Of a DNA stretch of 64,000 nucleotides, positions 25,256 to 64,000 are shown piece after piece. Location: positions 9,213,501 through 9,277,500 of the forward strand of contig NZ_JACHMH010000001.1 of NCBI RefSeq assembly GCF_014204915.1, written 5' to 3'. The stretch's first letter is position 1; each line of letters opens with the position of its first letter. The stretch comes from Crossiella cryophila. Its GTDB lineage: Bacteria; Actinomycetota; Actinomycetes; Mycobacteriales; Pseudonocardiaceae. The position numbers were made by a program, and so were the translations under genes. The notes beneath the pieces were generated by a model. The model saw only the letters and a program-made list of their open reading frames with translations, was not told the origin of the DNA and ran no database searches.

Positions 25256-25422
25256 GGCGGTCACTACCTCTCTTACCCGCCCATGCGCGACAAGCAGGTG
25301 CCTTGTACGTCTCCCGATGCCGCCAGGTCCCCGCCCGCCCGTCGCACCTGGTGCCGGGGAAGGTGCACCAGGGTCGAAAGCCGAGCGGACCGAGGCCAAG
25401 CCGCATCCGAATGCCTCACACG

Positions 25423-46151: not shown

Positions 46152-46466
46152 CCGGCACCTCCACCCCAGCTCCGAGACACGGCTCGAACGAGCGTTCGAG
46201 CCGGGAGGCTGGTGAAGTTTCCCCGAATCGGGGTAATCACACCAGTCAGATTACCCGATCACCCTGTTCTCGCAGGCCAGCCCGGCGCCAGGCTATGCGC
46301 AAGTTCACTGAACAACAACGTCGCGCGGTCGAGCGGCTTCGTGGCGGCCAACCTTCGGTCCGCCTGCACTTGCTGAGCAGCTAGGTACCGGCTTCACCCG
46401 CCGACGGCGGCATTTCCCGACTCCGACCGCGCTGCGCGATCCACGACGAGCCGCCGCAGTGCTCGG
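46152..46466. other. Intergenic region between dinB and the HerA operon, 315 bp
   Basis: It holds the dinB promoter with its SOS box (46184-46199). It also has an imperfect inverted repeat, ATCGGGGTAAT (46227-46237) and ATTACCCGAT (46251-46260), 12-13 bp apart, of unknown purpose. The minus-strand HerA operon ends at 46467. No gene is seen. Confidence 0.55.
46184..46199. promoter_or_regulatory. SOS (LexA) box of dinB
   Basis: TCGAACGAGCGTTCGA is a perfect TCGAAC-N4-GTTCGA site, extended to an 18-bp palindrome by a C and a G outside. It lies 33 bp upstream of the dinB GTG. Confidence 0.92.
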
Positions 46467-51724: not shown

Positions 51725-52212
51725 AGCTCCCCCTCTGAGCTGACAGCGTTCCGTATCGGACCGTGCACACACTGTACTTGAAGAGGTGAGGGGGACGGCC
51801 AGCACGTCACCGTCGACGGATGGTGCTCGTCTAGAACGTGGTGGTGAACATCCTGGTGTGGACGATGGGCATTCCAGATCGGGCAAGGTGGCAGGTGGAC
51901 CGGGGCACCAGCGCGCGGATGCCGAGTCGGTCAACCGCCGAAGTTGGATGTTCGCCTCGCCCTGGCCGAGGTAGCTCGCCTCTGCGCACAGGCAGAACCG
52001 GCTCGGCGCGCGGGCGTTTGGCGCCGATCATGCGTGCCGGCGGTGTCAGGGCTTCGTATTCGGGCGGCCTGTCGACCTTGTGGCACTGGGTATGCGAGAC
52101 CCAACTGCCGCTGCTGGACGGTGAGCGAGCCGACTGCGTTTGACGATGTCTTGCTGCGGAGGATCGCTGCCGCATTGTGGTGGATGTCGAGGAGCATGGG
52201 CGTGTACGCGTG

Positions 52213-52230
52213 AGGTAGCGCGTGTTACCT
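52213..52230. promoter_or_regulatory. Island palindrome, site A, upstream of the Crp gene
   Basis: AGGTAGCGCGTGTTACCT is an 18-bp palindrome with two purine/pyrimidine mismatch pairs. Its complement reads AGGTAACACGCGCTACCT. It lies 215 bp upstream of the Crp ATG and in the shared upstream region of the HerA operon. The AGGTAACRCG half recurs at 56787, 61211 and 63797. Confidence 0.65.
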
Positions 52231-52424
52231 AGGAACGTGTCCCCTGTGACAGGCGGACTTGGACGTTGACCTGTTCACCACGCAGCAGTCCACAATGGAC
52301 GCACTGAATTCGTTGCCGCATAGCCCCACGCCAGGGGACTCGAACACCCGGAGAAGGGTGGTGTACCCCCTGGCGGCTTCCACGTGCGTGGCGGCCGCCG
52401 AGAGGGTCGCACGGTGCGGAAGTC

Positions 52425-52440
52425 CTGGCGTGCCAGGGCA
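52425..52440 (+). repeat. 16-bp leader motif before the Crp start codon
   Basis: CTGGCGTGCCAGGGCA ends four bases before ATGAACG. The identical 16-mer precedes the AAA+ gene start with the same spacing (56624-56639, minus strand). The first 12 bases can fold as CTGGC-GT-GCCAG. It may be a translational or protein-binding control site. Confidence 0.75.
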
Positions 52441-52444
52441 ATCC

Positions 52445-53143
52445 ATGAACGAACGAACACTGGAACCGTTGCTCACCCGATGCCCGATCTTCGCCGAGGC
52501 GCCATCCGGTCCCGCGGTGGAGTTGGCGATGACCTTGCAGCGCAACGTCTACCCGGCAGGCAAACTGGTCTATGCCGAGCGTGACCCGGCGGACCGGATC
52601 TTCATGGTCTTGGCCGGGATCGTCAAGCTGATCCGGAACTCCTGTGATCGGGAACGGCGCATCCTGATGTCGGTGCGCGGACCGGCGGAGATCTTCGGCG
52701 AGGTCGAGGTCTACGAACGGTGCGCCCGCGAAACTGCGGCGGTCGCACACAACCAGTTGACCGTGCTGTCGATGGATGAGAGGGCGTTCCGGCGCTGGAT
52801 ACGCCGCTATCGCGCAGTGGAGGACTCGTTGCTGCGCGACATGGCCCGCCAACTCCGTCGAGCCAACCGGCAACTGACTCACCTGCGCTGCATCGACGTT
52901 GGCAGCCAGCTGGCACACGTCATCGTCGAGGCGTGCTCGAAGTTCGGCACCATCGCCCACCACCTCTGGTCGGTGGACCTGGGCCTGGCCCTGCTGGAAT
53001 GCAACCAGCAGATCGGTGCGAGCAAGGAGACGGTGAACAAGGTGCTCGCCGACTTCGTCGACCGCGGCTGGCTGAGGATCGAAGGGCAGACGCTGTTCGT
53101 GGTGGCGCCGGAGCAGCTCACCCGGCGAACCGAGGACAGCTGA
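52445..53143 (+). CDS. Crp/Fnr family transcriptional regulator
   Basis: A 232-residue regulator. The cNMP-binding-type beta-barrel spans about residues 12-125 (VYPAGKLVYAERDPADRIFM, VLAGIVKLIRNS, GPAEIFGEVEVYERCARETA). The dimerisation helix follows (EDSLLRDMARQLRRANRQLT), then an HTH_Crp domain (IGASKETVNKVLADFVDRGW). The FGEVEVYER loop differs from the RxS of true cAMP binders, so the ligand may be different or absent. No Fnr-type Cys cluster is seen. ATG 52445 starts the family similarity. It sits at the left edge of the VWA/NB-ARC/DnaB-like island and is the best candidate to bind the AGGTAACRCG sites. A terminator hairpin follows. Confidence 0.9.
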   Translation: MNERTLEPLLTRCPIFAEAPSGPAVELAMTLQRNVYPAGKLVYAERDPADRIFMVLAGIVKLIRNSCDRERRILMSVRGPAEIFGEVEVYERCARETAAVAHNQLTVLSMDERAFRRWIRRYRAVEDSLLRDMARQLRRANRQLTHLRCIDVGSQLAHVIVEACSKFGTIAHHLWSVDLGLALLECNQQIGASKETVNKVLADFVDRGWLRIEGQTLFVVAPEQLTRRTEDS

Positions 53144-53174
53144 GGCTGCCGGTGAACAGGACAACACGTCGTTC

Positions 53175-53210
53175 GGTGTTGCCGGACCGTTCATCCGGTC
53201 CGGCAACACC
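53175..53210 (+). terminator. Terminator after the Crp gene
   Basis: GGTGTTGCCGGACC (53175-53188) pairs perfectly with GGTCCGGCAACACC (53197-53210), an 8-base loop, followed by TCCCTTTC. It is 32 bp past the Crp stop. Confidence 0.8.
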
Positions 53211-53299
53211 TCCCTTTCGCCGACTTGGTGCCTGGCGGTCCGGTCGCGCGGGTCGCCCGGTCAGGGGCAGGTGTGCTGAACCTGGTTGGTGGGGAGGGT

Positions 53300-53336
53300 G
53301 GTGTTGCCGAACCAGTAGGTCTGGCTCGGCAACACC
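53300..53336 (-). terminator. Terminator downstream of the VWA gene
   Basis: GGTGTTGCCGA-A-CCAG (53300-53315) pairs with CTGG-C-TCGGCAACACC (53321-53336) with one mismatch, 38 bp past the VWA stop on the minus strand. Its outer arm GGTGTTGCCG is identical to that of the Crp terminator 125 bp away, so the two may be related by duplication. Confidence 0.7.
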
Positions 53337-53374
53337 GGTATGCACATCAGCTCAACGCGTACCTCCAACTCCTG

Positions 53375-55141
53375 TCAGCCGAGCACACGGTCCTGGCCGA
53401 TCGCGTCTTCGAGTACCTGCTGCACCAGCAGTGGAAGCTGGTCAACTCGATCGGGCGATACCGTCACGACTACCGGAACAACTCGGCGGAGTTGCCGCTG
53501 AATCGCCTCGCCCACGCCAATGGCCACCACCAACACGTCCTCATCGATCTTCGAGACCTGGGCGGCACTGCTGACGAGGTCGCCGTCGTCGAGGCAGGCA
53601 TCCGTGATGATCAACAGCAGGCGCCGTGTCCGGCGATCGGCTTCGACCCTCGCGAACTGCGCTGCCGCCCAGGCGACCGCTGGGGCCAACCGGGTTTGCA
53701 CACCGCTGGCCTGCGCCTGTGCCAACCATTCCTGAACGTTGGCAACAGACGCGCTGTCGGCGAGGTCGCGGATGACCATGACCTTGCCGGCGAAACCGGC
53801 TATCCCGATGGCGGCAAGACCATCGAGTTCGCCCACCGAGTTCACCAGCGCCGCCGCCGCGGCATGCGCCGCGGGCGCGGGCTTCGGCCCGGTCTCGGGA
53901 TCAAGCATCGAGGCCGAGCAGTCCAGCAGGAGGACACACTGCAGGCGGTGCAGCCGACTGGATTTTAGACGGTCGAGCCAGATCCGCGGGGCGTGCTCGA
54001 CCTGGTAGTGAGCGTTGAGGTAGACGCGGCCGGCTTGCCGCTCCAGGTCCAGCCGAGGTCCCGAGCTACTGGGGCAGCGTCGCCGCGCGGGCGCGGTGAG
54101 CAGCGGCCGGAGCACTGCGGCGAACTGCTGAGTCAGCACCGGCACCAGATCCACCCACCGCCTGACTACCTCAAGGATGACAGGATCGGCCTGCTGCCGC
54201 GCCCATTCCTCTGGCGGGAGCACCAGCTCGGCGTAGTTCTGCGGGCCGCGCTGCTCGTGATAGATCTGCATCACCGCTCGCCGATACCCTTGGTGGTCAA
54301 CAGCTTCGCGGAGGAAGCGAAGCAGATCACCTCTGGGCCGAGGCCGGCCTTCCGGAGAGTTCCGGCCGATGCAGTGCGCTGGGTGCGAGGTGGCGTGCAG
54401 GTGATCAAGCAGCTGCCGCTCGAACTCCTCGCGGCTGGTGTGTTCTCCTTCCTCACCATCGTGCTCGCGCTGCCGCACCCATTCCCACAGAACGTTGATC
54501 AACTCCTCGCCCATGGTCGCCGCGTGATGCCAGGACGTATGCCTGGCCCGGACCAGGATCGAGGCGATCTCCGGCCAGACCGCGGCGAAGACGGGGTCGG
54601 CCGGGCTGTCGGTCTCGGAGCCGTCATCACGCCGCAGCCGACCACAACGCATGATCAGCATGCCCCAGGCCAGCAACCGTTGGGCGTCCCGGACAGCCGA
54701 GGAACCTGCGGCTGCGTCGGCTGGTTCGCCGTAGGGCTCTAGTAGGCACAGGTAGGCCAATTCCCGGTTCAGCGGCCAGTGGGACAGGGTGTCCAGTATG
54801 GGCAGGTGATCGCCGCGGATGTCGGCCAGGATGTTGGCGATGACCCCGCGGAGGGTGTTCGCCGGTTGCGGCCGGTAGCCCTGGGTGTGTTCCCAGGCGT
54901 GCATCGCTTCGTGACCGGCCAGGTAGGAGATCATCTGGTACGGCAGCGTGCCGGCCAGCTCCTGCCACACCGGGTGGAAATGCCCGGCCGCAAGAACCTG
55001 GCTGACCGGAAAGGCCACGGTGAAGCCCAGCGGGTTCGCCCTGGTGGAGGGTTGCCCAGATGGGGTGACGAACACCCGATGGCCCGGCACGATCATGCCG
55101 AAGACCCGACGCAGGACACCCTCGTACTCAGGCTCAGTCAC
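53375..55141 (-). CDS. Metallopeptidase-like (DUF2201_N) and VWA-domain protein
   Basis: A 588-residue protein. The N-terminal part has the zinc-peptidase-like helix SYLAGHEAMHAWEHTQGY (HEAMH near residue 77) and a downstream NILADIRGDHLPIL that could give the third ligand, as in DUF2201_N. Residues about 395-560 form a VWA-like domain with the MIDAS DCSAS (VLLLDCSASMLDPETG, about 405) and RRLLLIITDACLDDGD. VWA proteins of this kind work with MoxR-type ATPases, here the gene just upstream. GTG 55141 overlaps that gene's stop (GTGA). The pair probably forms a chaperone/protease-like module; its substrate is unknown, with the NB-ARC or DnaB-like products as candidates. Confidence 0.85.
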   Translation of the reverse strand: MTEPEYEGVLRRVFGMIVPGHRVFVTPSGQPSTRANPLGFTVAFPVSQVLAAGHFHPVWQELAGTLPYQMISYLAGHEAMHAWEHTQGYRPQPANTLRGVIANILADIRGDHLPILDTLSHWPLNRELAYLCLLEPYGEPADAAAGSSAVRDAQRLLAWGMLIMRCGRLRRDDGSETDSPADPVFAAVWPEIASILVRARHTSWHHAATMGEELINVLWEWVRQREHDGEEGEHTSREEFERQLLDHLHATSHPAHCIGRNSPEGRPRPRGDLLRFLREAVDHQGYRRAVMQIYHEQRGPQNYAELVLPPEEWARQQADPVILEVVRRWVDLVPVLTQQFAAVLRPLLTAPARRRCPSSSGPRLDLERQAGRVYLNAHYQVEHAPRIWLDRLKSSRLHRLQCVLLLDCSASMLDPETGPKPAPAAHAAAAALVNSVGELDGLAAIGIAGFAGKVMVIRDLADSASVANVQEWLAQAQASGVQTRLAPAVAWAAAQFARVEADRRTRRLLLIITDACLDDGDLVSSAAQVSKIDEDVLVVAIGVGEAIQRQLRRVVPVVVTVSPDRVDQLPLLVQQVLEDAIGQDRVLG

Positions 55142-56619
55142 TCGACGGTGCCTCCGATCTCCGGGAAGGCGGCTTGGAGCTGCTGGTCGGAGACCAGCGA
55201 GCTGAACGGCAGGTGGGAGACCTTCGGGGTGCCCCACCCCTCCAGCCCGTGCACCAGGGACAGCGCGTGCAGCGCCAGCGCCGGATCGCGCGGCAACTTG
55301 CCGGCGAAGACCGCCACGGCGATCTCGTTGGCCGGTTCACCGAAGGCGCGCCGCTCGACCGCTTCCCGCACCGCGCGGCTGCCCCAGGAATACCGGGCGG
55401 CCAACACCTGATTCCGGTTGAGCAGACAGGCTGTCCGGGCGGTGAGGTCGGCGAACTTCTCCAGCTCCTCCAGCGCTGTGTCCAGTGTGGAGGCACAAGC
55501 CAGTCCGCGGTGGACAAGCTCCTGGAGAACACGAGCACCGGCCTGGTAGGCATCCCTGGCAAGGCAATCCCGGTGGAGTTGCGTCACCGGCAACACCGTC
55601 CACCGCTCCAGCCACTTCGCACCGAAGTCGACACTCGGCCGGTTCGTCGTCCCGGCGATGAGGACCCGCGGATCGATCGCAACATCGATCGCGCCACCGG
55701 TGATCGGGTAGTACGCCTGCAACCTGGCCGCGGTCGGGTTGAGCAGCGGTTCGATGGCATCGAGCACGTCCATCCGGTCGGCCCACCGGTGCAGGTCCAC
55801 CAGTTCAATCACGCACGGGTGCTGGATCGCCTCGACGAGCAGGCTGTGGTGCAGCACCGTGGCCCCGCCTTCCAACCCGATGCGGAACAGCTCGATCTGC
55901 TCGGGGGTGTTGATCGTCAGGTAGGGCACGCCGCGGTTGGCGGCGATCCGGGCCAGCGTCGCGGACTTGCCGGTCCCGGATGGCCCGGCGAGCAGGAAGA
56001 CCCGGCGGCCCAGAGCCGTGAGGTTCTCCAGCTGCTGTTCGACCGCCTCGTTGGTGACCGCGTCGGTGAGCGAGCAAGGGTCCGGGACGCGCTCGCCCAG
56101 CTCCCGCGACCACCGGGCCGGCGGCCGCAGTGGTGGGACCTGGATGGGCACGAGCGCGCTGGATGCCTTCTGCCAGCGCATGCTCGCTGGGAAGAACACC
56201 AGCCGGTGCTCGTCGGCGAAGTCGGCTGCCGAGGGCTCGCCCATGCCGAGTGTGAACTCGGCGATGTTGTCGACGGCCTCACGCACCGCCGCCCCTGCCT
56301 GTCCGTCGAGTTGGGTGCCGGCTTCCAGGAGGGCTTGGTGGTGTGCGCACGGGAGGATGGGACATTCGGCGCAGTACAGGCCGATTCCGGTGGGCTGGTA
56401 CATCAGCGCGAACTCCGGCTTGGCGAGTTCGCCCTGGCCGTGGTGGATGAGGATCCGGATGGTGGTGTCCGGCGCGGTCGTGCAGGGGCTGGTGAAGCTC
56501 GCGGTCAGCTCGACCACGCTGGTGTCGGTGGTGTCGAGGATCCAGGCCGAGCTGTCGTGTAGCTGGCGCCAGAGGGCCTTGGCCTTGCGTCGTCGGACCA
56601 GGTACTTGATTCCGTTCAT
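55138..56619 (-). CDS. AAA+ (MoxR-like) ATPase with N-terminal SWIM-like zinc motif
   Basis: A 493-residue protein. Residues 83-93 read CAECPILPCAH (CxxC-x4-CxH), followed by HQALLEAG, close to a SWIM zinc finger. Upstream strands (VVELTASFTS, TTIRILIHHG) fit that domain. The AAA+ core has Walker A LLAGPSGTGKSATLARIAAN (about residue 211), a Walker B-like HPCVIELVDLHRWADRMDVL in which the usual DE is replaced (VDLH), and sensor 1 RVLIAGTTNRPSVDF. ATP hydrolysis may therefore be weak. ATG 56619 is preceded by the 16-bp leader shared with the Crp gene. It is coupled to the VWA gene by GTGA. SWIM, MoxR and VWA genes are known to cluster; here SWIM and AAA are fused. Confidence 0.83.
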   Translation of the reverse strand: MNGIKYLVRRRKAKALWRQLHDSSAWILDTTDTSVVELTASFTSPCTTAPDTTIRILIHHGQGELAKPEFALMYQPTGIGLYCAECPILPCAHHQALLEAGTQLDGQAGAAVREAVDNIAEFTLGMGEPSAADFADEHRLVFFPASMRWQKASSALVPIQVPPLRPPARWSRELGERVPDPCSLTDAVTNEAVEQQLENLTALGRRVFLLAGPSGTGKSATLARIAANRGVPYLTINTPEQIELFRIGLEGGATVLHHSLLVEAIQHPCVIELVDLHRWADRMDVLDAIEPLLNPTAARLQAYYPITGGAIDVAIDPRVLIAGTTNRPSVDFGAKWLERWTVLPVTQLHRDCLARDAYQAGARVLQELVHRGLACASTLDTALEELEKFADLTARTACLLNRNQVLAARYSWGSRAVREAVERRAFGEPANEIAVAVFAGKLPRDPALALHALSLVHGLEGWGTPKVSHLPFSSLVSDQQLQAAFPEIGGTVE

Positions 56620-56623
56620 GATG

Positions 56624-56639
56624 TGCCCTGGCACGCCAG
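56624..56639 (-). repeat. 16-bp leader motif before the AAA+ start codon
   Basis: On the minus strand CTGGCGTGCCAGGGCA ends four bases before ATGAACG. It is identical in sequence and spacing to the Crp gene leader at 52425-52440, and no third copy was noticed in the window. Confidence 0.75.
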
Positions 56640-56786
56640 AACCCCGCGGTCGCCGGACCGGGGGTCGCCAGGGGGTGCACCGCCTTCCAGCGGAGTGCGG
56701 GAACGCCCTGGCGTGGGCGCCGGTTTCGGGTACGCGTTGTTGAGCTGTCAACGTGCGGGTCCGCGGCTGAGCGCGGACACCAGCTC

Positions 56787-56797
56787 AGGTAACGCGC
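56787..56797. promoter_or_regulatory. Island motif, site B (half-site)
   Basis: AGGTAACGCGC lies between the AAA+ gene (start 56619, minus) and the NB-ARC gene (start 56903, plus). It matches the left half of site C exactly. The mirrored TTACCT half is missing, so only one half-site is present. It could serve either gene. Confidence 0.5.
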
Positions 56798-56902
56798 CGG
56801 CCGAGACCGGTGCCGGAACGTTGGCAGTGAGGCTGTCGTCCATGCGGGTGGTCGTGTTCGGCGACGTGCCGATCATGGCTCTTAGTCGACACACTCGGTG
56901 GC

Positions 56903-59050
56903 ATGACGGACACGGGGGGTGTGCGTAACCAGGTCGGCGGCGGCGACCTTGGCGCCGTGGTGCAGGCCGGGACAATCCAGCACCTGTCCTTCGCCGGAAC
57001 AGGCTCGCCGCAGGCGGTACCCCGGCAGTTGCCGTTGGCGGTCCGGGGGTTCACCGGTCGCAGCGAACATCTAGCCGCCCTCGACGCCCTACTGCCGGAC
57101 ACCAATCAGGACACCGGCGGCGCGGTGGTGATCTCCGCGGTCGACGGCACTGCCGGAGTCGGCAAGACCGCCTTAGCAGTGCAATGGGCGCACCGAGTCC
57201 AGCACCGCTTCCCTGAGGGCACTCTCTTTGCCAACCTTCGTGGCTACGGCCCTGGCACACCGGCAACGCCGGAGGAGGTGCTAGCCGGATTTCTGCACGC
57301 GCTCGGTATTCCGGCCGAACGTATCCCGCCCGGAGTAGACGCCCAGGCCGGGGTGTATCGTTCTGTATTGGCTGGTCGGCGAGTGCTGATCGTGCTGGAT
57401 AACGCGAACGCAGTTGCTCAAGTTCGCCCCCTGCTGCCGGGCAGCTCCGGGTGCCTGGTGTTGATTACAAGCAGGGCGAGTTTGACAGGCCTGGTGATTG
57501 GGGAGTCCGCTACCCGCCTCACTCTTGATCTGCTCACACCCAGTGAATCATTGCACCTGTTGGGCGAAGCTCTTGGCGCGGACCGCGTCAAGGGCGAACC
57601 CGATGCAGTCAATGCCCTAATTCGTTGCTGCGCCAGGTTGCCGCTGGCACTACGAATCGCTGCTGGCCAGGCCGCTGCTCATGCACATACCACGATTGCC
57701 GAGCTGGTCGCTGAAATGGCCGACGATCGGTCGCGCCTGGACACCCTCAGTGCTACCGGAGACGAGTCGCTAGCCGTCCGGGCAGTTTTCGACTGGTCCT
57801 ATCACCAACTCACACCTGAACAGGCTTGCCTGTTCAGGCGCCTCGGGCTGCACCCAGGCCCTGAAATCAGCCTGCATGTCGCTGCCACAACAGGCGAATT
57901 GGGCCTTATGGAGGCTCGTCGATTGATGAACGCGCTCATCGGAGCTCACCTGATCCAGCAAGTAGCTCGTGATCGCTATCGTTTCCATGACCTTTTGCGC
58001 GCATACGCTGCGGACCGAGCTGAAGTCGAAGACACTCCTGCGGACCGAATCCGTATCCGTCGAGCCTTAGTCCAGTGGTACGCCCATCACGCCAAGACTG
58101 CGTTCCTTGCCAGGAATCCTGCGTTCTCTGAATGGTATCCGGCGCTCAAGATACCGACGTCAACTTACCCAGAAATGAAGTTTGACGGAGCCTCCAATGC
58201 TTCTGCATGGATGGAAACAGAGGTAGAGAACCTGATTTCCGCCATGCATCAAGCCGTAAGCTGCAATCTGCATCAGATAACTCTGCTGATATCCACGTCA
58301 ATTTGGAGCTTTCTGCATCAGCAGGGTCGACGCGCAACTATGATCGAACTTGACCAAATCAGCTTGAAGGTCGCACGCGGTATGGGAGACAGTCTTGCCG
58401 AATATCACGCCTTAAGCCTTCTAGGTGAGACGCTGGCGGCAGTCTCAAGATTCGATGAATCGTTCGCCGTGTACCAACAGTGTTTGATCATGGCGCGAGA
58501 TTCGCGTGACTCGTGGCGCGAGGCGGCCGCTTTACTCTCCCTGGGGCACTGGTTCAATCGACAGAAAAAGTATGGCGAGGCACTAAACCACCTTCGGGCA
58601 GCTCTTCCGATGAGTCGTGGCGCCCAACAAGGGCGACTGGAAGGTACGATCGAGGGAAATTTGAGTACTTCCAATGCTGGCCTGGGAAATTTCCGGCAGG
58701 CCCTCCTTCATGCCGAGCGTGAGCTTCCCCTCCGGCGCCAGGCAGGTGACAGGCAGGGTGAGTTGCTGGCATTGCGACACATGGCGCGAGCACATCAGGG
58801 GCTAGATGCTCACGACGAAGCAATTTCCTTATGTGAACGCGCATTGGAAATCGACCATGAGTTCGTCAGAGAGAAGGCCGAGATCCTCGAAACGGTCGGA
58901 CAATCTTTGTGTCACACAGGCCAGACCGGCCGGGCGATCGCCTTCTGGCAGGAGGCTCTATCAATCTTCGAAGCTCTCGGAGACGGCGAAGCGGTGGAGC
59001 TACGGGGCCGTCTGCTTGAACTGAAGGCAACGTTGAACAAGGGAAACTGA
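56903..59050 (+). CDS. NB-ARC/TPR STAND protein
   Basis: A 715-residue STAND ATPase. Residues 8-30 carry the NQVGGGDLGAVVQAGTIQHL motif, typical of the N-terminus of actinobacterial NB-ARC proteins. The NB-ARC domain has GFTGRSEHLAALDALL, Walker A AVDGTAGVGKTALAVQWAH (about residue 88), Walker B GRRVLIVLDNANAV, GSSGCLVLITSR and CCARLPLALRIAAGQAA, ending in the winged-helix and MHD-like FHDLLRAYAADRAE. Residues about 400-700 are TPR-like helical repeats. There is no DNA-binding or toxin domain. From about 57400 the third codon positions become noticeably AT-richer than in neighbours, suggesting transfer. It resembles AfsR/SARP regulators without their DNA-binding domain and may be a sensor in the island. 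Confidence 0.88.
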   Translation: MTDTGGVRNQVGGGDLGAVVQAGTIQHLSFAGTGSPQAVPRQLPLAVRGFTGRSEHLAALDALLPDTNQDTGGAVVISAVDGTAGVGKTALAVQWAHRVQHRFPEGTLFANLRGYGPGTPATPEEVLAGFLHALGIPAERIPPGVDAQAGVYRSVLAGRRVLIVLDNANAVAQVRPLLPGSSGCLVLITSRASLTGLVIGESATRLTLDLLTPSESLHLLGEALGADRVKGEPDAVNALIRCCARLPLALRIAAGQAAAHAHTTIAELVAEMADDRSRLDTLSATGDESLAVRAVFDWSYHQLTPEQACLFRRLGLHPGPEISLHVAATTGELGLMEARRLMNALIGAHLIQQVARDRYRFHDLLRAYAADRAEVEDTPADRIRIRRALVQWYAHHAKTAFLARNPAFSEWYPALKIPTSTYPEMKFDGASNASAWMETEVENLISAMHQAVSCNLHQITLLISTSIWSFLHQQGRRATMIELDQISLKVARGMGDSLAEYHALSLLGETLAAVSRFDESFAVYQQCLIMARDSRDSWREAAALLSLGHWFNRQKKYGEALNHLRAALPMSRGAQQGRLEGTIEGNLSTSNAGLGNFRQALLHAERELPLRRQAGDRQGELLALRHMARAHQGLDAHDEAISLCERALEIDHEFVREKAEILETVGQSLCHTGQTGRAIAFWQEALSIFEALGDGEAVELRGRLLELKATLNKGN

Positions 59051-59094
59051 GCCCACTATTCCTGTTGTCTCATGATTCTGACCACAGGGGCCGG

Positions 59095-59388
59095 TCAACT
59101 TTCTTCTCCTTGCGGACCTGCGACATTAAGGGCGGCAGCTAACCTGTCGGCCAGAAACAGAAACCCATTCGAGGAAACTTTGTACGTCTGGCCGATGAGG
59201 CTAAGTGGAGTCTCTAGCCAATAGCGCCACTCTGCCTCTGAAGTGTTCTCGTAAGTGGAGTGGTTGCCGACTACCAGGTCATCGAGTTCGGCTTGCATAC
59301 GGTCGGTGCGGAGCCACTCAGGTGACGAGGGTAGCTGGCATGGGGGTGGGGCGCCGCCCGTCACCCGAACCCCGACAGGCGAGGTCAT
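59095..59388 (-). CDS. Small hypothetical protein
   Basis: A 97-residue protein from ATG 59388 with no recognised domain. The C-terminal two thirds (WLRTDRMQAELDDLVVGNHS, then WRYWLETPLSLIGQTYKVSS and NGFLFLADRLAAALNVAG) looks like a folded helical protein and has ordinary codon use. The N-terminus is Pro-rich and the start is uncertain; no SD is visible. It follows the DnaB-like gene by 55 bp on the same strand and may be in its operon. Overall GC resembles the NB-ARC gene, not the neighbours further right. Confidence 0.5.
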   Translation of the reverse strand: MTSPVGVRVTGGAPPPCQLPSSPEWLRTDRMQAELDDLVVGNHSTYENTSEAEWRYWLETPLSLIGQTYKVSSNGFLFLADRLAAALNVAGPQGEES

Positions 59389-59443
59389 GGGAAACAGGCG
59401 GCGTCCATGGCGAGCTGTCCTTGAGCGACACAGCAGAGGACGA

Positions 59444-61093
59444 TCAGGGTTTGGCGGGTTCCGGCTGCCAGGCGGCCACCGTGGAGTCGACCGGGACCCA
59501 CACCTCCCGCGCCACCTCCACCGTGCCGTCAGCATGCTCGGATGCGGGCGGGTTCAGCACGTAGCTGGGCAGTGACCACAAACGGGTCACGTGCTCCTCC
59601 GCCTGGTCCACCAGCACCTCCTCGACCTGGTCGACCGATGGAAGGTCCCGGGCGGGTGTGCGGTCGCCAGGGAACTCGAACTTGCCGCCGACGAACCGCA
59701 ACGGCAGTTGCCGGGTGGCCACCGAGCGGCCGGAGATCCGCAGGATTGCCTGTTCGGGTGGGTGGATGCGGCCTTCGTGGTCGCGGGCGAGCATGCAGAA
59801 CACGCTGGCCGTCTCGAACGTCGAGCGGGCGCCGTTGACCTCGGTCGGTGCCGGGGGTTCCAGCGGTGGCCGGTGGGTTTGACCGGTGCGTGGGTCGGTG
59901 GTGACCCGGGGTGTGGGTTCGCGGCGGGCGTTGACCTGCTCGCACACCACCACGTTGCTCGACAGGCCGGCCAGGTCGGTGAACTGGCGGCCGCCCAGGC
60001 CGAACCAGCCGGGGTCGAAGACCCGGAGGCTGGTGTCGGCACCGCGGATGAACTCCTCACAGACGGTGAAGTCTGTGCCGGAGGCCAGCATCGAGGTCAG
60101 GTAGTCCACGAAGCAGGCCGCCAGCCAGCAGTCGGCGATCGGCAGGCCGTGTTGCTCAGACCAGCGAAGGTTGGCCACGGCGAAACGGCGGATCTCCGCC
60201 TTGAACGCGGCCAGCCGCTTGGCCGGATCGCTTCCGGCGCGGGCGAAGAACTCCTTGCCGAACAACAGGAACCTCGGCCGCCCCAGCGGAGTGGGTGCGA
60301 AGACCTGCTCCGGGTCGGGCAGGTACTGCTGCAGCCGCCCTAGCAGTTCAGCGCGGGTCATCTCGGTGCAGAAGAACACCACCTGTGCCTCCGGCGCCAC
60401 CAGCGCAGCCGCCAGGACCAGGCGGGTCGCCCACCAGCAGGCCAAGGCGGTCTTGCCGACCTTGGTCCGCGCGCCCAGCAACACCAACTCACCCAGCCAG
60501 TCGCCGCGTTGGTGCAACAGGATGTCCAGCTCGGGGTGCACGGGGAAACCGCGGCCGGTGCCGTGGACCTCCATCTCTCGCCGCAGGACCTCGGCGGCGT
60601 GTTCGGCGTAGGGGTCGGCGGCGACCCACTGGTCGTCGTCGGTGCGCACCACATCGAGTAGCTCGTGCACGGCTTCCCCGGCGCGGTCGTTGTCGCCGGA
60701 GCGGTAGTGGTGGGCGATCGTGCGGATCAGCGTGTCGAAGCGACGGTGCCGGGCGCGGCGGCTGACCAGCGCGGCCAGCACCTCCACCTCGTCCGGGCAG
60801 GCCGGCAGTTGCGGATGGCGTTGCTCGGTCTCGCTGTCCCAGGCCGCCAGGGCCCGGTCCAGGTGTGGGTGCAGGCCCTGGTCGAGGTTGTAGCGGATGC
60901 CGACCGTGGCCAGCTGGGGGTGGGTCGCCCGGATTTCGCGGAGGCGGTCGAAGGCCCGGCCCAGGCCGGGGTCGGCGAACTCCTCGCTTCCGCGGACCAC
61001 GAGCCCGGTGCGCCCGTCAGCCAGGGACGGATCTCGCACCAGACAAGCGGTCAGCAGTAGTTCTTCGCGGTCGCTCGCCGAGTCGGCGTCCAT
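59444..61093 (-). CDS. DnaB-like replicative-helicase homologue (RecA fold)
   Basis: A 549-residue protein. The N-terminal ~100 residues resemble DnaB_N (ASDREELLLTACLVRDPSLA, then FADPGLGRAFDRLREIRATH). The C-terminal RecA-fold motor has Walker A VLLGARTKVGKTALACWWAT (about residue 212) and a Walker B/DYL motif LAACFVDYLTSMLASGTDFT (about 329). A VVVCEQVNARRE stretch corresponds to the DnaB SQLNR motif, then VNGARSTFETASVFCMLARD corresponds to DnaB H4. It is not the chromosomal DnaB: it diverges strongly and sits among accessory genes. ATG 61093 has GGAGA upstream. A 14-bp perfect inverted repeat lies about 110 bp upstream. Possible roles are element replication or DNA sensing in a defence complex. 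Confidence 0.82.
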   Translation of the reverse strand: MDADSASDREELLLTACLVRDPSLADGRTGLVVRGSEEFADPGLGRAFDRLREIRATHPQLATVGIRYNLDQGLHPHLDRALAAWDSETEQRHPQLPACPDEVEVLAALVSRRARHRRFDTLIRTIAHHYRSGDNDRAGEAVHELLDVVRTDDDQWVAADPYAEHAAEVLRREMEVHGTGRGFPVHPELDILLHQRGDWLGELVLLGARTKVGKTALACWWATRLVLAAALVAPEAQVVFFCTEMTRAELLGRLQQYLPDPEQVFAPTPLGRPRFLLFGKEFFARAGSDPAKRLAAFKAEIRRFAVANLRWSEQHGLPIADCWLAACFVDYLTSMLASGTDFTVCEEFIRGADTSLRVFDPGWFGLGGRQFTDLAGLSSNVVVCEQVNARREPTPRVTTDPRTGQTHRPPLEPPAPTEVNGARSTFETASVFCMLARDHEGRIHPPEQAILRISGRSVATRQLPLRFVGGKFEFPGDRTPARDLPSVDQVEEVLVDQAEEHVTRLWSLPSYVLNPPASEHADGTVEVAREVWVPVDSTVAAWQPEPAKP

Positions 61094-61203
61094 GCGCTGT
61101 CTCCGTCTCTTGTGGACGGCCGGGACCGCGATGCGGCCGGGCGGCCGCGTCTCTGCTGTGTGGAGTTGCCAAAGGACAGACCTTGGACCCATACGGGTCC
61201 ACG

Positions 61204-61240
61204 CCGTGGCAGGTAACGCGCCGCGTGTTACCTGCCACGG
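61204..61240. promoter_or_regulatory. Island palindrome, site C, between the DnaB-like gene and the 61356 operon
   Basis: CCGTGGCAGGTAAC (61204-61217) and GTTACCTGCCACGG (61227-61240) are perfect 14-bp complements around GCGCCGCGT. The inner part AGGTAACGCG...CGTGTTACCT is the island motif. Its place between divergent starts (61093 and 61356) fits an operator for both. A transcribed hairpin is the alternative. Confidence 0.75.
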
Positions 61241-61355
61241 TGTCCGACCGGTGGACGGCTGAGCGCTACCGCGCGCAGTCCGCCCCGGCCGGGTGGGCTG
61301 CCGTGCGCCGCCTCGGGCGCCACCGACACGTGAGGTGCAGGAAGGAAGGAGCGCC

Positions 61356-61982
61356 ATGAGTCACAAGAACGTGCCCTCGTGGTCGCACCCCGGGGTGATC
61401 ATCGGCGTGGGCAGCACACCGGAGGGCCGTGGCCACGGCAACTACTGGCTCAACAAGATCGGTCCCCGGCACTGGCAGTGGATCGGAGCCAATCCGCGCC
61501 ACGGCACCTACCACCACGGCGCCGCGTGGGCAGTCGCGGTCGGCGGCCTGCCGCCGCAGGCCGAACTCGACAGCAAACGGCACGCGCTGTTCCTGCTGTG
61601 GGGACGGCCCGAGCTGCGCGCGGGCGAGCCGGTGGCCACCGCCGACATCGACGAGGTCGAAGCCGTGCTGGCCAAGCTCGCCCGGCAGGAGTCGGCAGTC
61701 CTGGATCCGGCGCGGCCGGACATGGTCCCGGTGCTCGACGTGCTCTTCCGCGCCCAGTACGGCGGCGTGCACTCCTGGATCTCGGCCCGGCACGGCGACC
61801 TGCTCGCCGTACACCAGGACGAGGACCCGGGCTTGCCGCGGATCCGCTCCCGACTCGCCGAAGCGCACCTGCTGGCCGAGTGGGCGAGCGAGGACGGGAT
61901 CAAGTGGGCCAAGCCGGCCACCCGTATCGACGAAACCGCCGCGGTACAGGAGACCGCGGTCGTCGAGGAGGTGCGGTCATGA
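61356..61982 (+). CDS. Unknown protein, first gene of the 61.4-63.7 kb operon
   Basis: A 208-residue protein. A His/Trp-rich N-terminus (HPGVIIGVGSTPEGRGHGNY, then WLNKIGPRHWQWIGANPRHG) is followed by a helical acidic part (ADIDEVEAVLAKLARQESAV). No family is recognised. GAAGGAAGGA precedes ATG 61356 and the stop overlaps the next ATG (ATGA), so it is a genuine coupled gene. It starts divergently from the DnaB-like gene across site C. Confidence 0.8.
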   Translation: MSHKNVPSWSHPGVIIGVGSTPEGRGHGNYWLNKIGPRHWQWIGANPRHGTYHHGAAWAVAVGGLPPQAELDSKRHALFLLWGRPELRAGEPVATADIDEVEAVLAKLARQESAVLDPARPDMVPVLDVLFRAQYGGVHSWISARHGDLLAVHQDEDPGLPRIRSRLAEAHLLAEWASEDGIKWAKPATRIDETAAVQETAVVEEVRS

Positions 61983-63727
61983 GCGCCCCGACGATCTCCA
62001 CTGTGGACCGGGCGTGGCTGGTGCGGTGTGTGGAGCGGGATCTGCGCGAGCTGGCCGAGCTGGACACCGTGGTGCACTCCGTCGGCAACCTGGTCCGCCA
62101 GTCACAGGAGGAACCACCTCGGGCGCGCAGCGCGATCAGGACGCTGTGGGAGACCGCGACCGCGGCACGGAAACGGGCGGCCCCCAACCGCCTGCTGCTC
62201 GCTCGGGTGCGCTCGGTGTTGCAGGACAGCCATTGCACGGTCTCAGCGGCCACCACCGCCGCTGTCGTCCACGGCATCCTGCACGGCTCCATCCGCCCGA
62301 CCGCGCTCACCCCGGACAGCATCACGCAGCCACCGTTGCGGATTCCGCCCTCGGTCGGCGTGCGCCACGGTGCGCTGGCCGACCTGCTGTGCACCACCGG
62401 CAACCTCGCGGACTCGGTGTGGAACCACGCCCATCGCAGCCGGATCGACTTCGACGAGGACCTGCGCCGACTGCGGACCTGGCTGGCGAAGGTGCCCGAA
62501 CTGCGGGCGCCGGACCGCCTGGTGCCCTTGCTGGGCGAATCGTCGGGGGAGTTCCAGGTGCACCGCCACCCACGACCAGTCCACCCGCGTACCGCGGAGC
62601 TGGAAACCCCGTCGATCAGCTACGAGGTGCTTACCGCACCTCAGCTCGATCTGCTGCACACCGCGATTCGGCAAGGGCTCCCGGTCAAGGTAGCCAGCAT
62701 GATGGCCGGCACCACCGCGGAGCCGTTGTCGGCCGGTGCGGCCGTGGCGGCGGTGATGCGCTGCGGGGCCTGGCTGCGCAGGACCATCGACGAGAACGGT
62801 CTGCCGGTCGCGAGTTCCTCCTACACCTCGCGGAGGATCTCGCCCAGCTGGCTGATCGCCGCACCGGTCAAGCGGCACCGGGCTGTTCGGGCGTTCGCGT
62901 TGCACTACACGCCTGAACTCGGCCGGTGGTATCAGATCCTGCGCGGGGACATCCCCGATCTGCGGGGACTCATGCCGATGCGCCGGGCGCATTACCTGGC
63001 GCTGGCCGCGCATGTGGCCGGCGGTGGGCGGCTCTCCGACTTCGCCGAGCACCAGGCCCGGCGGTACCGGGATGTCGTGCAGGCGTGGGACCGGATGACC
63101 ACCTTCACCGCCGAACTCAGGCTCGTTCGCCAGGCGGTCCTGGACGCCGTCGCAGATTGGCCGGCCGAGTACACCGAGGAGGTGAAGCAGCCGCTGGCCG
63201 AGCTGGTGCAGACGGTGCGCACCGGGCTCGCCGAACTCGGTCGCCCGGCCGACCAGGAGATCGGCGCGGCCTACGGGCGGCTGATCAACTGTGACGACGT
63301 GAAAGAGGCGGGTGAGGCGTTCGGCGCGCTGACCGCGGTGCTGACCGGATACCGGAACGCCCTGCGGCGGTTCACCGTGGCCGACCCGACCGACTGGGGC
63401 AGTGCGGAGTTCGCGTTGTTCCACAAGCGGTATCCCGATACCGCCCCGTCGGACTTCGGCACATCGAGCCCACGCGCACACGCGGTCGAGGTAATCCGCG
63501 CCGAGGTACGGCGGTTGCTCGCCGCGCGGCTTCCCGCGGTCCCGGCGACCGAGGTGGCCTTGCTCGCCGAGCTGCACCGGGAGCTGAGCAACGCCGTCCG
63601 CGAACAGCGCAGCCCCGGGCTGGCGTCGTACTGGCGGTTGTGGCTCACCCCCGGTGCGCCCGACGAGCACGTCTGGCGCGCGTTCCTGGAATGGCCGGAC
63701 CTGGTCACACTGGCCACAACCAAGTAG
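61979..63727 (+). CDS. Unknown protein, second gene of the 61.4-63.7 kb operon
   Basis: A 582-residue, largely helical protein with many Arg/Leu/Ala-rich amphipathic segments (AWLVRCVERDLRELAELDTV, LRRLRTWLAKVPELRAPDRL, EYTEEVKQPLAELVQTVRTG). There is no signal peptide, membrane segment or nucleotide-binding motif. I recognise no domain. ATG 61979 overlaps the upstream stop and translation is probably coupled. A strong hairpin 8 bp after the stop ends the unit. TCCACTGTGGA occurs near its start (61997-62007) and encodes Ser-Thr-Val-Asp. Size and context suggest a scaffold or sensor subunit that works with the 208-residue protein. Confidence 0.8.
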   Translation: MSAPTISTVDRAWLVRCVERDLRELAELDTVVHSVGNLVRQSQEEPPRARSAIRTLWETATAARKRAAPNRLLLARVRSVLQDSHCTVSAATTAAVVHGILHGSIRPTALTPDSITQPPLRIPPSVGVRHGALADLLCTTGNLADSVWNHAHRSRIDFDEDLRRLRTWLAKVPELRAPDRLVPLLGESSGEFQVHRHPRPVHPRTAELETPSISYEVLTAPQLDLLHTAIRQGLPVKVASMMAGTTAEPLSAGAAVAAVMRCGAWLRRTIDENGLPVASSSYTSRRISPSWLIAAPVKRHRAVRAFALHYTPELGRWYQILRGDIPDLRGLMPMRRAHYLALAAHVAGGGRLSDFAEHQARRYRDVVQAWDRMTTFTAELRLVRQAVLDAVADWPAEYTEEVKQPLAELVQTVRTGLAELGRPADQEIGAAYGRLINCDDVKEAGEAFGALTAVLTGYRNALRRFTVADPTDWGSAEFALFHKRYPDTAPSDFGTSSPRAHAVEVIRAEVRRLLAARLPAVPATEVALLAELHRELSNAVREQRSPGLASYWRLWLTPGAPDEHVWRAFLEWPDLVTLATTK

Positions 63728-63734
63728 TCCATCT

Positions 63735-63765
63735 GGGAGGGCACCGGTGATCCCGGTGTCCTCCC
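63735..63765 (+). terminator. Terminator after the 61979 gene
   Basis: GGGAGGGCACCGG (63735-63747) pairs with CCGGTGTCCTCCC (63753-63765) over 13 bp with one G-T pair and a 5-base loop, followed by CTTCCCTGTCT. It is 8 bp past the stop. Confidence 0.8.
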
Positions 63766-63796
63766 CTTCCCTGTCTGCACGACCACGGGCGTCGTC

Positions 63797-63807
63797 GCGC
63801 GTTACCT
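63797..63807. promoter_or_regulatory. Island motif, site D (half-site)
   Basis: GCGCGTTACCT is the complement of AGGTAACGCGC, the same 11 bases as site B and the left arm of site C. It lies 47 bp upstream of the ATG at 63854. The second half is not present. Confidence 0.5.
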
Positions 63808-63853
63808 ACGCGGGTGGCAAGCACCACCGCACCCAGCGAAAGGACCATCCGCG

Positions 63854-64000
63854 ATGGCCACCCCCGTACCCTTCTGCGGCGAACTCGATCCCGACTCAGC
63901 GTTTGAACTCCACCTCCGGTTCCGGGTGCCGCTGTGGCGCCTGGAATCCGGGACCCGGCGAATTCAGGCCGCGTTGACCCAGCTGAAACTGTCCAGCCCG
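63854..64000 (+). CDS. Unknown protein, N-terminal part (runs off the window)
   Basis: An open frame from ATG 63854 gives 49 residues without a stop before the window ends (MATPVPFCGELDPDSAFELH, then LRFRVPLWRLESGTRRIQAA). AAGGA lies ten bases upstream. Third-position GC is high. No family can be named from so short a piece. It belongs to the island by position and carries a half-site of the island motif in its upstream region. Confidence 0.65.
   Translation, partial: MATPVPFCGELDPDSAFELHLRFRVPLWRLESGTRRIQAALTQLKLSSP

What the first reader, a model, noticed from the sequence alone, without database searches (positions are those of the whole stretch)
52213..63807. Shared AGGTAACRCG motif in four intergenic regions of the 52-64 kb island
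AGGTAACRCG occurs as an 18-bp palindrome upstream of the Crp/Fnr gene (52213), as a 37-bp perfect-armed inverted repeat between the DnaB-like gene and the divergent unknown operon (61204-61240), and as 10-11-bp half-sites at 56787 and 63797 beside the AAA+/NB-ARC genes and the last gene. I noticed no copy elsewhere in the window. The distribution suggests one local regulon, plausibly controlled by the Crp-type protein, so the genes probably belong to one system.
Basis: seen in the sequence. Interest (0 to 1): 0.8.

Follow-up and report, generated by a model that had tools for sequence, protein, structure and literature searches.

The report
Private promoter of a bacterial mobile element
The repeated DNA word is most likely the core of a promoter used throughout a large mobile element found in several copies in Crossiella bacteria, which carries its own diverged sigma-like factors that probably read it, and at two kinds of genes it sits above a conserved structured RNA that matches no known family.

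Summary
In detail: all 5 exact AGGTAACRCG matches of the window lie at 52.2-63.8 kb. Genome-wide the word marks two paralogous ~60-75-kb integrated elements of this Crossiella chromosome and relatives in the four other genomes held for the genus. Of 140 exact sites in the five genomes, 82 lie in element spans (1.5% of the DNA; 2 expected). Read towards genes it is CGYGTTACCT; 101 of 104 intergenic sites with a gene within 300 nt ahead face its start. A CRRCCA box lies exactly 12 nt upstream in one element group, a transcript start is inferred 8 nt downstream, and start codons avoid the next 9-26 nt: promoter geometry, not a Crp palindrome. The elements encode two diverged sigma-like proteins: one just past the window's end (Sigma70 region 2, 8 of 8 copies), one 45 kb further (sigma-70 regions 2-3). 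Crp-like and MoxR-vWA genes also share a structured leader RNA (33 copies, no Rfam match) whose arms could pair with the ribosome site. Best reading: element-private promoters and sigma factors, as on plasmid pBS32, plus a new cis-RNA on its regulators. Transcription and binding are inferred, not measured.

The parts
52221..52230 (+). -10-like element CGTGTTACCT of the predicted promoter of the Crp-like gene; predicted transcript start 52239; no -35 box
52213..52222 (-). imperfect overlapping copy (CGCGCTACCT) facing the other way; weak, possibly not functional
52239..52447 (+). predicted 5' leader RNA of the Crp-like gene: 5'-terminal hairpin from 52239, conserved core 52320-52447 ending at the start codon
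52445..53143 (+). Crp/Fnr-like gene (232 aa from the ATG after the leader); Pfam cNMP_binding above and HTH_Crp_2 just below cut-off; family present in 9 of 9 element loci
53375..55141 (-). vWA-domain gene of the MoxR-vWA operon
55138..56619 (-). MoxR-like AAA+ gene (Pfam AAA_5), first gene of that operon
56617..56778 (-). predicted 5' leader RNA of the MoxR-vWA operon (core 56617-56722; 5'-terminal hairpin from 56778)
56787..56796 (-). -10-like element CGCGTTACCT of the MoxR-vWA operon; predicted transcript start 56778; faces away from the NB-ARC gene
56903..59050 (+). NB-ARC/TPR gene; no site points at it; my gene caller missed it, so it was not compared between elements
59444..61093 (-). 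DnaB-like helicase gene (weak matches: Pfam DnaB_C 24.1 bits against a cut-off of 27)
61211..61220 (-). -10-like element of the DnaB-like gene; predicted transcript start 61202; its -35 position lies inside the opposite promoter
61224..61233 (+). -10-like element of the divergent operon; predicted transcript start 61242
61356..61982 (+). element gene of unknown function, 208 aa (6 of 9 loci)
61979..63727 (+). element marker gene, 582 aa, unknown function; 98% identical in the second copy; in 5 of 200 family genomes, all one genus
63780..63785 (+). -35-like box CGACCA, 12 nt before the -10-like element
63798..63807 (+). -10-like element CGCGTTACCT; predicted transcript start 63816; promoter of the conserved two-gene operon that ends with the ECF-like sigma gene
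63854..64000 (+). start of the gene that overlaps and precedes the ECF-like sigma gene (continues to 64183; the sigma-like gene is 64180-64902 in window numbering, beyond the window, L027:680-1402)
46182..46203 (.). candidate left att repeat: 22-bp direct repeat (second copy at 121112 in window numbering, beyond the integrase) containing a LexA-box-like palindrome (consensus recalled), 33 nt from the dinB-type gene

Best explanation
The word is the -10 part of a dedicated promoter, (CRRCCA-N12-)CGYGTTACCT-N8-start, used by many genes of an integrated mobile element (DnaB-like, PolA-like, primase-like, MoxR-vWA, Crp-like regulators, putative lipoproteins; an SSB-like gene in the larger elements). 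It is read by host RNA polymerase carrying an element-encoded sigma-like factor. The ECF-like one (second gene of the operon behind site 63798) stands behind the same promoter in 8 of 8 elements, so it should be self-amplifying; a second, sigma-70-like one is, with one weak exception in copy B, not behind it and could be the trigger or the main reader. ParA- and ParB-like genes lack the promoter, so maintenance would run on host promoters while replication, regulation and presumably transfer are switched on together. The Crp-like and MoxR-vWA mRNAs add a conserved leader RNA whose arms can pair with each other or with the ribosome-binding strand, suggesting a further translational switch. Shown here: distribution, orientation, spacing, boxes, sigma similarity, leader conservation. 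Inferred: transcription starts, who reads the promoter, the switch and its signal.
For: 82 of 140 exact sites in 5 genomes lie in element spans defined by shared genes (0.72 of 49.1 Mb; 2.05 expected); 14 more lie in the fetched flanks. 72 of the 82 are intergenic though about 80% of the spans is coding; 64 of 65 exact and 37 of 39 one-mismatch intergenic sites with a gene within 300 nt ahead face its start. CRRCCA (at least 5 of 6) sits at exactly -18 in 26 of 35 exact sites of elements D, F, H, I, J, mean 1.3 at the other offsets. Distances from word to start codon: 5, 7, 7, 8, 8, then none between 9 and 26, then 27 and more (one-mismatch sites: 8, then 35 and more), as for leaderless or RBS-bearing mRNAs starting about 8 nt downstream. 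A Y-R-T signature at +17 to +19 in the other group and hairpins beginning near +18 (stems of 6 or more: 11 of 114 at offset 18, 0-2 at offsets 10-14 and 24-59) agree. Sigma candidates: Pfam Sigma70_r2 in 8 of 8 copies at E up to 1, individual E 2e-5 to 1e-3 (the G copy in a reading with shifted ends), and both copies of the own genome listed over the cut-off in a genome scan (26.3 and 24.4 bits); the larger protein is 96% probable, E 5e-9, against host sigma-70 over regions 2-3 while the next of 75 element families tested reaches 29% against that profile, and 21 of its 23 PDB matches are sigma factors. The operon of the ECF-like factor has the word in 8 of 8 elements: 6 exact, 2 with one mismatch. 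No site was found up to 1.5 kb upstream of 8 ParA-like and 7 ParB-like genes. Leader RNA: 33 copies in 5 genomes, 17 of them used to build the model; competing hairpin mean stem 5.55 against 4.92 (sd 0.16) when partners are swapped, 0 of 500 reached.
Against: No transcript, binding or knockout data. By hmmscan the ECF-like factor passes Pfam's cut-off in only 2 of 8 copies; no sigma is among its PDB matches; its profile match to host ECF sigmas is only 32% and covers region 2 only; a single-sequence AlphaFold model failed (pLDDT 41.5). PDB E-values of the second factor are weak (0.0065 at best), and a region-4-like HTH is read from the alignment only. Elements A, B, C and G mostly lack the -35 box (8 of 51 sites, against 43 of 63 in the other group), so the promoter model is incomplete there. 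Sites were collected with at most one mismatch, so their invariance is partly by construction, and A, B, C are close homologues. The second sigma is missing from element C, whose sites remain. 58 of 140 exact sites lie outside the spans: 14 in fetched flanks; the remaining 44 are near the reversed-word control (52 in the five genomes), though at least 4 of them look real (two before Tad-pilus-like operons, two before leader copies). The bipartite pattern with up to one mismatch against its reversed control: 15/8, 25/7, 31/7, 24/6, and no excess in G055 (10/10). The second 5'-hairpin test is modest (19 of 114 at offset 18, 4-11 elsewhere), and the predicted transcript at 63816 has no such hairpin.
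Confidence: 0.72

Rival explanations
1. One reading: the Crp-like protein binds the word (as a palindrome or half-sites) and controls the island.
For: A Crp-like gene is in 9 of 9 element loci; two of the window's four places form inverted repeats; MoxR-vWA-type conflict systems linked to CRP-like regulators are described (PMC7159879, passages seen).
Against: The word is directional and mostly single; inverted pairs span 18-62 bp and fit divergent promoters. It has a -35-like partner at fixed distance. Crp-like HTH helices differ between elements while the word is shared. 13 of the 15 Crp-like genes found stand behind the leader RNA, so they look like targets.
Confidence: 0.1
2. The word is the operator of an unidentified element regulator (KorB/ParB-like or stoperator-like) that overlaps ordinary host promoters.
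For: Element-wide operators are known in other elements (recalled: RK2 KorA/KorB, mycobacteriophage L5 stoperators); ParB-like genes are present in 7 of 9 loci; directional operators exist.
Against: The word occupies the inferred -10 position and does not contain the TANNNT of host promoters (consensus recalled); the co-conserved -35 box is CRRCCA; the ParA/ParB-like genes themselves have no site, unlike autoregulated KorB.
Confidence: 0.12
3. The promoter is read by a host ECF sigma factor; the element merely exploits it.
For: The genome has 69 Sigma70_r2 matches, nearly all outside the elements; S. coelicolor sigma-E promoters have AAC at -35 and a 16-17-bp spacer (PMC6767563, passages seen); real-looking sites precede Tad-pilus-like operons outside the elements.
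Against: Outside the spans the word occurs at about 1.2 per Mb against 114 per Mb inside; all 5 genomes with the clusters carry the element's own sigma-like genes.
Confidence: 0.06
4. Sites are similar only because the islands are paralogous; the word has no function.
For: A, B and C share much homologous sequence.
Against: Exact copies are kept in 9 of 9 loci, including loci whose marker protein is only 38-42% identical, before different genes and in one orientation.
Confidence: 0.01

Closest known systems
SigN (ZpdN) of Bacillus subtilis plasmid pBS32 (PMC6751061: abstract and passages seen)
   Same: Element-encoded sigma factor weakly similar to ECF sigmas, with its own consensus, positive feedback on its own promoter and a regulon of element genes rich in DNA replication functions.
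   Different: Here integrated elements of a high-GC actinobacterium, two diverged sigma-like proteins, promoters before very many element genes, a shared structured leader RNA; no LexA-box-like site with up to one mismatch was found next to the sigma operons, and nothing here is measured.
ECF sigma factors and their promoters, e.g. sigma-E of Streptomyces coelicolor (PMC6767563: passages seen)
   Same: AAC-type -35 with a 16-17-bp spacer; here AAC-N16-CGTT at sites with a CAACCA box; region-2 similarity of the window-adjacent factor.
   Different: Ten-base, highly conserved -10 part; the factor scores near or below the Pfam cut-off, the gene before it has no family match, and many promoters of one element group lack the -35 box.
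vWA-MoxR conflict systems (PMC7159879: start of abstract and passages seen)
   Same: MoxR-vWA gene pair in an actinobacterium, with a CRP-like regulator and an NB-ARC gene nearby.
   Different: DnaB, primase and sigma factor have 0 occurrences in that paper's main text; here the pair is part of an element with replication genes and an integrase.
Translational riboswitches and other switching leaders (recalled)
   Same: Structured leader ending at the start codon, with mutually exclusive helices one of which would cover the ribosome site.
   Different: No Rfam match and no known ligand; it serves transcription-factor genes and a MoxR-vWA operon.

Membership tests
ECF sigma factor (protein encoded at 64180-64902, beyond the window) | Sigma region 2 | tested here: met
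   Pfam Sigma70_r2 in 8 of 8 members at E up to 1; individual E 2e-5 to 1e-3, over the curated cut-off in 2 of 8 by hmmscan and in both own-genome copies in the genome scan
ECF sigma factor (protein encoded at 64180-64902, beyond the window) | Sigma region 4 (-35 recognition) | tested here: inconclusive
   C-terminal segment with invariant HHRT; HTH_23 only at E 0.07 and 0.3 in 2 of 8; profile alignment covers region 2 only; structure model failed
Sigma-70 family (464-aa protein L029:5875-7269 and relatives) | Regions 2 and 3 | tested here: met
   hhalign 96%, E 4.9e-9, 124 columns against five host sigma-70 proteins; 21 of 23 PDB matches are sigma factors, best E 0.0065
Sigma-70 family (464-aa protein L029:5875-7269 and relatives) | Region 4 | tested here: inconclusive
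   match to RpoS extends to profile position 352; hhalign 11.8% to ECF region 4
Sigma factor (either protein) | Directs RNA polymerase to a promoter | not testable with these tools
   needs in vitro transcription
Crp/Fnr operator | Palindrome of fixed half-site spacing (such as N6) | tested here: not met
   most sites single; inverted pairs span 18 to 62 bp
Host primary-sigma promoter | -10 TANNNT (consensus recalled) | tested here: not met
   base after TACCT is T in 1% of 114 sites
Integrative mobile element | Integrase and att repeats | tested here: met
   Phage_integrase match E 1.6e-6, 28.4 bits against a cut-off of 27.1, near the right end of copy B and 22-bp flanking direct repeats for B; no repeat of 14 bp or more found for copy A in the stretches compared
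Integrative mobile element | Excision or transfer | not testable with these tools
   no experiment; no empty site was looked at
Known cis-regulatory RNA family | Match to an Rfam model | tested here: not met
   whole window at gathering: only mraW elsewhere; 52200-57000 at E up to 1: one unrelated weak match at 53284; five leader loci: none

The most novel reading that the evidence does not exclude
A genus-wide family of large integrating elements runs a private transcription programme with two diverged sigma factors in a cascade, reading one element-wide promoter, and adds a new class of bistable leader RNA before most of its Crp-like regulators and its MoxR-vWA operon, so that a signal (perhaps the nucleotide sensed by the Crp-like proteins) gates the programme at translation. 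The same promoter also recruits host Tad-pilus-like operons, possibly for transfer.
Probability: 0.3. Interest if true: 0.87.

Novelty: new variant of a known kind. Interest (0 to 1): 0.7.

Why it matters
If right, a short repeated word identifies both the promoter and, by neighbourhood, weakly recognisable sigma factors of a family of mobile elements, giving a testable switch for their replication and spread in actinomycetes. It would extend the pBS32 SigN case from one plasmid to integrated elements with two sigma-like factors. The leader RNA would be a new family of regulatory RNA with 33 copies at hand for ligand or protein screening.

Tried and rejected
Crp palindrome: rejected on direction, spacing and the -35 box. 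AlphaFold of the ECF-like sigma from one sequence: useless (pLDDT 41.5), so no fold search was made. PDB search with the ECF-like family: no sigma among 2 weak matches. Relatives of the large serine-rich ATPase in phages: none; plasmids: 2 distant ones, Alkaliphilus and Ruminococcus. Relatives of the DnaB-like protein in plasmids: none. Sigma relatives in viral contigs: none for the larger, one 32%-identity fragment for the smaller. Larger sigma in 396 genomes of the phylum: only this genome. A palindrome just after the predicted transcript start was considered as the true Crp operator; the leader conservation and paired changes favoured RNA, but a DNA site is not excluded. RNAalifold on the first leader alignments gave 0 of 17 and 1 of 13 pairs with changes on both sides, and on the model-fitted alignment of 33 copies covariation of the two main helices is weak because they hardly vary; swap tests on the competing hairpin and on the 19 long mid helices are positive (0 of 500 and 0 of 1000), the 13 short mid helices are marginal (25 of 1000 reach), one copy was left out for a mid part under 9 nt. 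Claims of not-in-print rest only; the word AGGTAACGCG occurs in 23 papers, of which the 8 listed look unrelated by title (none opened).

Full report
Observation. The word AGGTAACRCG occurs 5 times exactly in the window, all between 52.2 and 63.8 kb, with 0.09 expected. In the 10.06-Mb chromosome it occurs 22 times (reversed control 12), 18 of them in two clusters.

The clusters are two copies of one element. The regions around 3.69-3.75 Mb (A) and 9.26-9.33 Mb (B, containing the window's end) are paralogous: matched proteins are 44-98% identical (best pairs), largely in shared order. Pfam finds PolA, ParB, SecA, NlpC/P60, EspG, MoxR-type AAA, vWA and Crp-like genes and, near B's right end, a phage-type integrase, and weaker (below cut-off) DnaB-like, primase-like and ParA-like matches. 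The 582-aa marker (61979-63727) is found in 5 of 200 genomes of the family, all of one genus, and in 5 of 5 genomes held for that genus; a named record of a relative identifies it as Crossiella. Nine element loci were fetched: A, B (own genome), C, D, F, G, H, I, J; I and J lie on separate contigs and may be halves of one element. D and its kin add RecT and YqaJ and an SSB-like gene (recognised by eye).

The word follows the elements. In the five genomes it occurs 140 times; 82 lie within spans defined only by shared genes, 0.72 Mb of 49.1 Mb, where 2.05 are expected; 14 more lie in the fetched flanks, among them the window's own 52221 site. The other 44 are near the number of the reversed word (52).

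It is a promoter part. 72 of these 82 are intergenic; 64 of 65 exact and 37 of 39 one-mismatch intergenic sites with a gene within 300 nt ahead face its start. In gene direction the word is CGYGTTACCT. In elements D, F, H, I, J a box CRRCCA stands exactly 12 nt before it (26 of 35 exact sites with at least 5 of 6 letters, mean 1.3 at other offsets); over all intergenic sites with up to one mismatch 43 of 63 in that group and 8 of 51 in A, B, C, G have it. In A, B, C, G a Y-R-T signature begins 7 nt after the word. Start codons lie 5-8 nt after the word or at least 27 nt after it, with nothing between, which fits leaderless and RBS-bearing mRNAs beginning about 8 nt downstream. Hairpins starting there are enriched (a looser test is modest). 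At CAACCA sites the arrangement is AAC-N16-CGTT, like ECF promoters (sigma-E passages seen). The window's inverted repeat between the DnaB-like gene and its neighbour is then a pair of back-to-back promoters, and the 56787 site belongs to the MoxR-vWA operon.

Sigma candidates. Directly after the window's last site comes a two-gene operon whose second gene (64180-64902) matches Sigma70 region 2; all 8 homologues do, 2 of 8 over the cut-off by hmmscan, both own-genome copies in a genome scan. The operon has the promoter word in 8 of 8 elements, in D inside a wrongly extended gene call. A second family (464 aa in B; 8 copies in the five genomes, none in element C) aligns with host sigma-70 regions 2-3 at 96% while the next of 75 element families tested reaches 29%, and 21 of its 23 PDB matches are sigma factors, each weak. 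Neither family was found outside the genus in the genomes sampled: 200 of the family for the first, 396 of the phylum for the second. Which one reads the promoter is open; the first is behind it in all elements, the second only in copy B, by a one-mismatch site without -35 box. No site was found up to 1.5 kb upstream of 8 ParA-like and 7 ParB-like genes, nor of 6 SecA-like genes.

Leader RNA. Between the predicted start and the start codon of the MoxR-vWA operon and of Crp-like genes lies a conserved leader: GCCAGGG, AAGGYGGTG, CCCTGGC, then CTGGC-GCCAGGG-ATG. A covariance model from 17 copies finds 33 in the five genomes. By my reading of the places 31 are in or within 13 kb of element spans; the other two, in G055, each lie just downstream of one of the word's outlying sites. 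Of 28 copies examined, 25 end exactly at a start codon (the 17 used for building were cut there); 13 precede Crp-like genes (13 of the 15 in the two Crp-like clusters), 8 MoxR genes, 3 small proteins with cysteine pairs, 4 other or short frames. Five or so stand inside operons, before a second gene. The first and last GCCAGGG are the same, so CCCTGGC can pair with either, and the last covers the likely ribosome site; predicted folds of different copies fall into both states. A further hairpin competes for the first arm, and its partners change together (30 of 33 with stems of 5 or more; mean 5.55 against 4.92 for swapped partners, 0 of 500); the 19 long mid helices likewise (5.37 against 3.62, 0 of 1000), the 13 short ones marginally. 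The main arms hardly vary, so they give little covariation. Rfam has no match.

Outlying sites. One site outside the elements, 6415466, and its counterpart in G108 stand before a gene that looks by eye like a prepilin peptidase, at the head of a Tad-pilus-like operon (no family search was run on these). The element's serine-rich ATPase (NF033849) has distant relatives on two Clostridia plasmids, one of which carries annotated Tad-pilus-type genes nearby. A link to transfer is a guess.

Comparison. The nearest precedent seen is SigN of pBS32: weakly ECF-like, autoactivating, with a replication-rich regulon on its own element. This case would work like it; membership among sigma factors is supported for region 2 (and 3 for the second protein), inconclusive for region 4 and untested for function.

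What is shown and what is not. Shown by computation: the distribution, direction, spacing and boxes, the sigma similarity, the leader's conservation. Spans, gene starts and clusters rest on a simple gene caller written here.

Noticed in passing
window 46182-46203 and window numbering 121112 (L029:17612-17633): 22-bp direct repeat flanking copy B, containing a perfect TCGAAC-N4-GTTCGA palindrome (LexA-box-like, recalled) 33 nt from the dinB-type gene: the element may sit in an SOS operator.
   Followed up: partly
L026:14351-17434 (beside copy A) and L050:2004-5108 (beside element C): Copy A and element C both end next to the same gene, which looks by eye like UvrA; C lacks the right part of the element with the integrase and the larger sigma.
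   Followed up: partly
L125:15466-15493 and L131:10427-10454: Full -35/-10 copies of the element promoter before prepilin-peptidase-like genes of Tad-pilus-like operons outside the elements.
   Followed up: partly
L028:8119-11889: 1256-aa serine-rich ATPase (NF033849), 97% identical between the two copies although most neighbours diverge more; relatives on two Clostridia plasmids.
   Followed up: partly
G055:C1:4563185-4563304 and 5173585-5173702 (L150, L165): Leader RNA copies far from the known element of that genome, each just downstream of an outlying copy of the word: possible remnants or further elements.
   Followed up: no
window 25305-25414 (-): mraW RNA (Rfam RF01746), 64.6 bits.
   Followed up: no
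L024:11563-11769: A further Sigma70_r2 match (34 bits) inside copy A with no counterpart in copy B in the same list.
   Followed up: no
L028:14369-14459: ARAGORN reports a tRNA-His on the strand opposite to an ALF-repeat gene; probably spurious.
   Followed up: no
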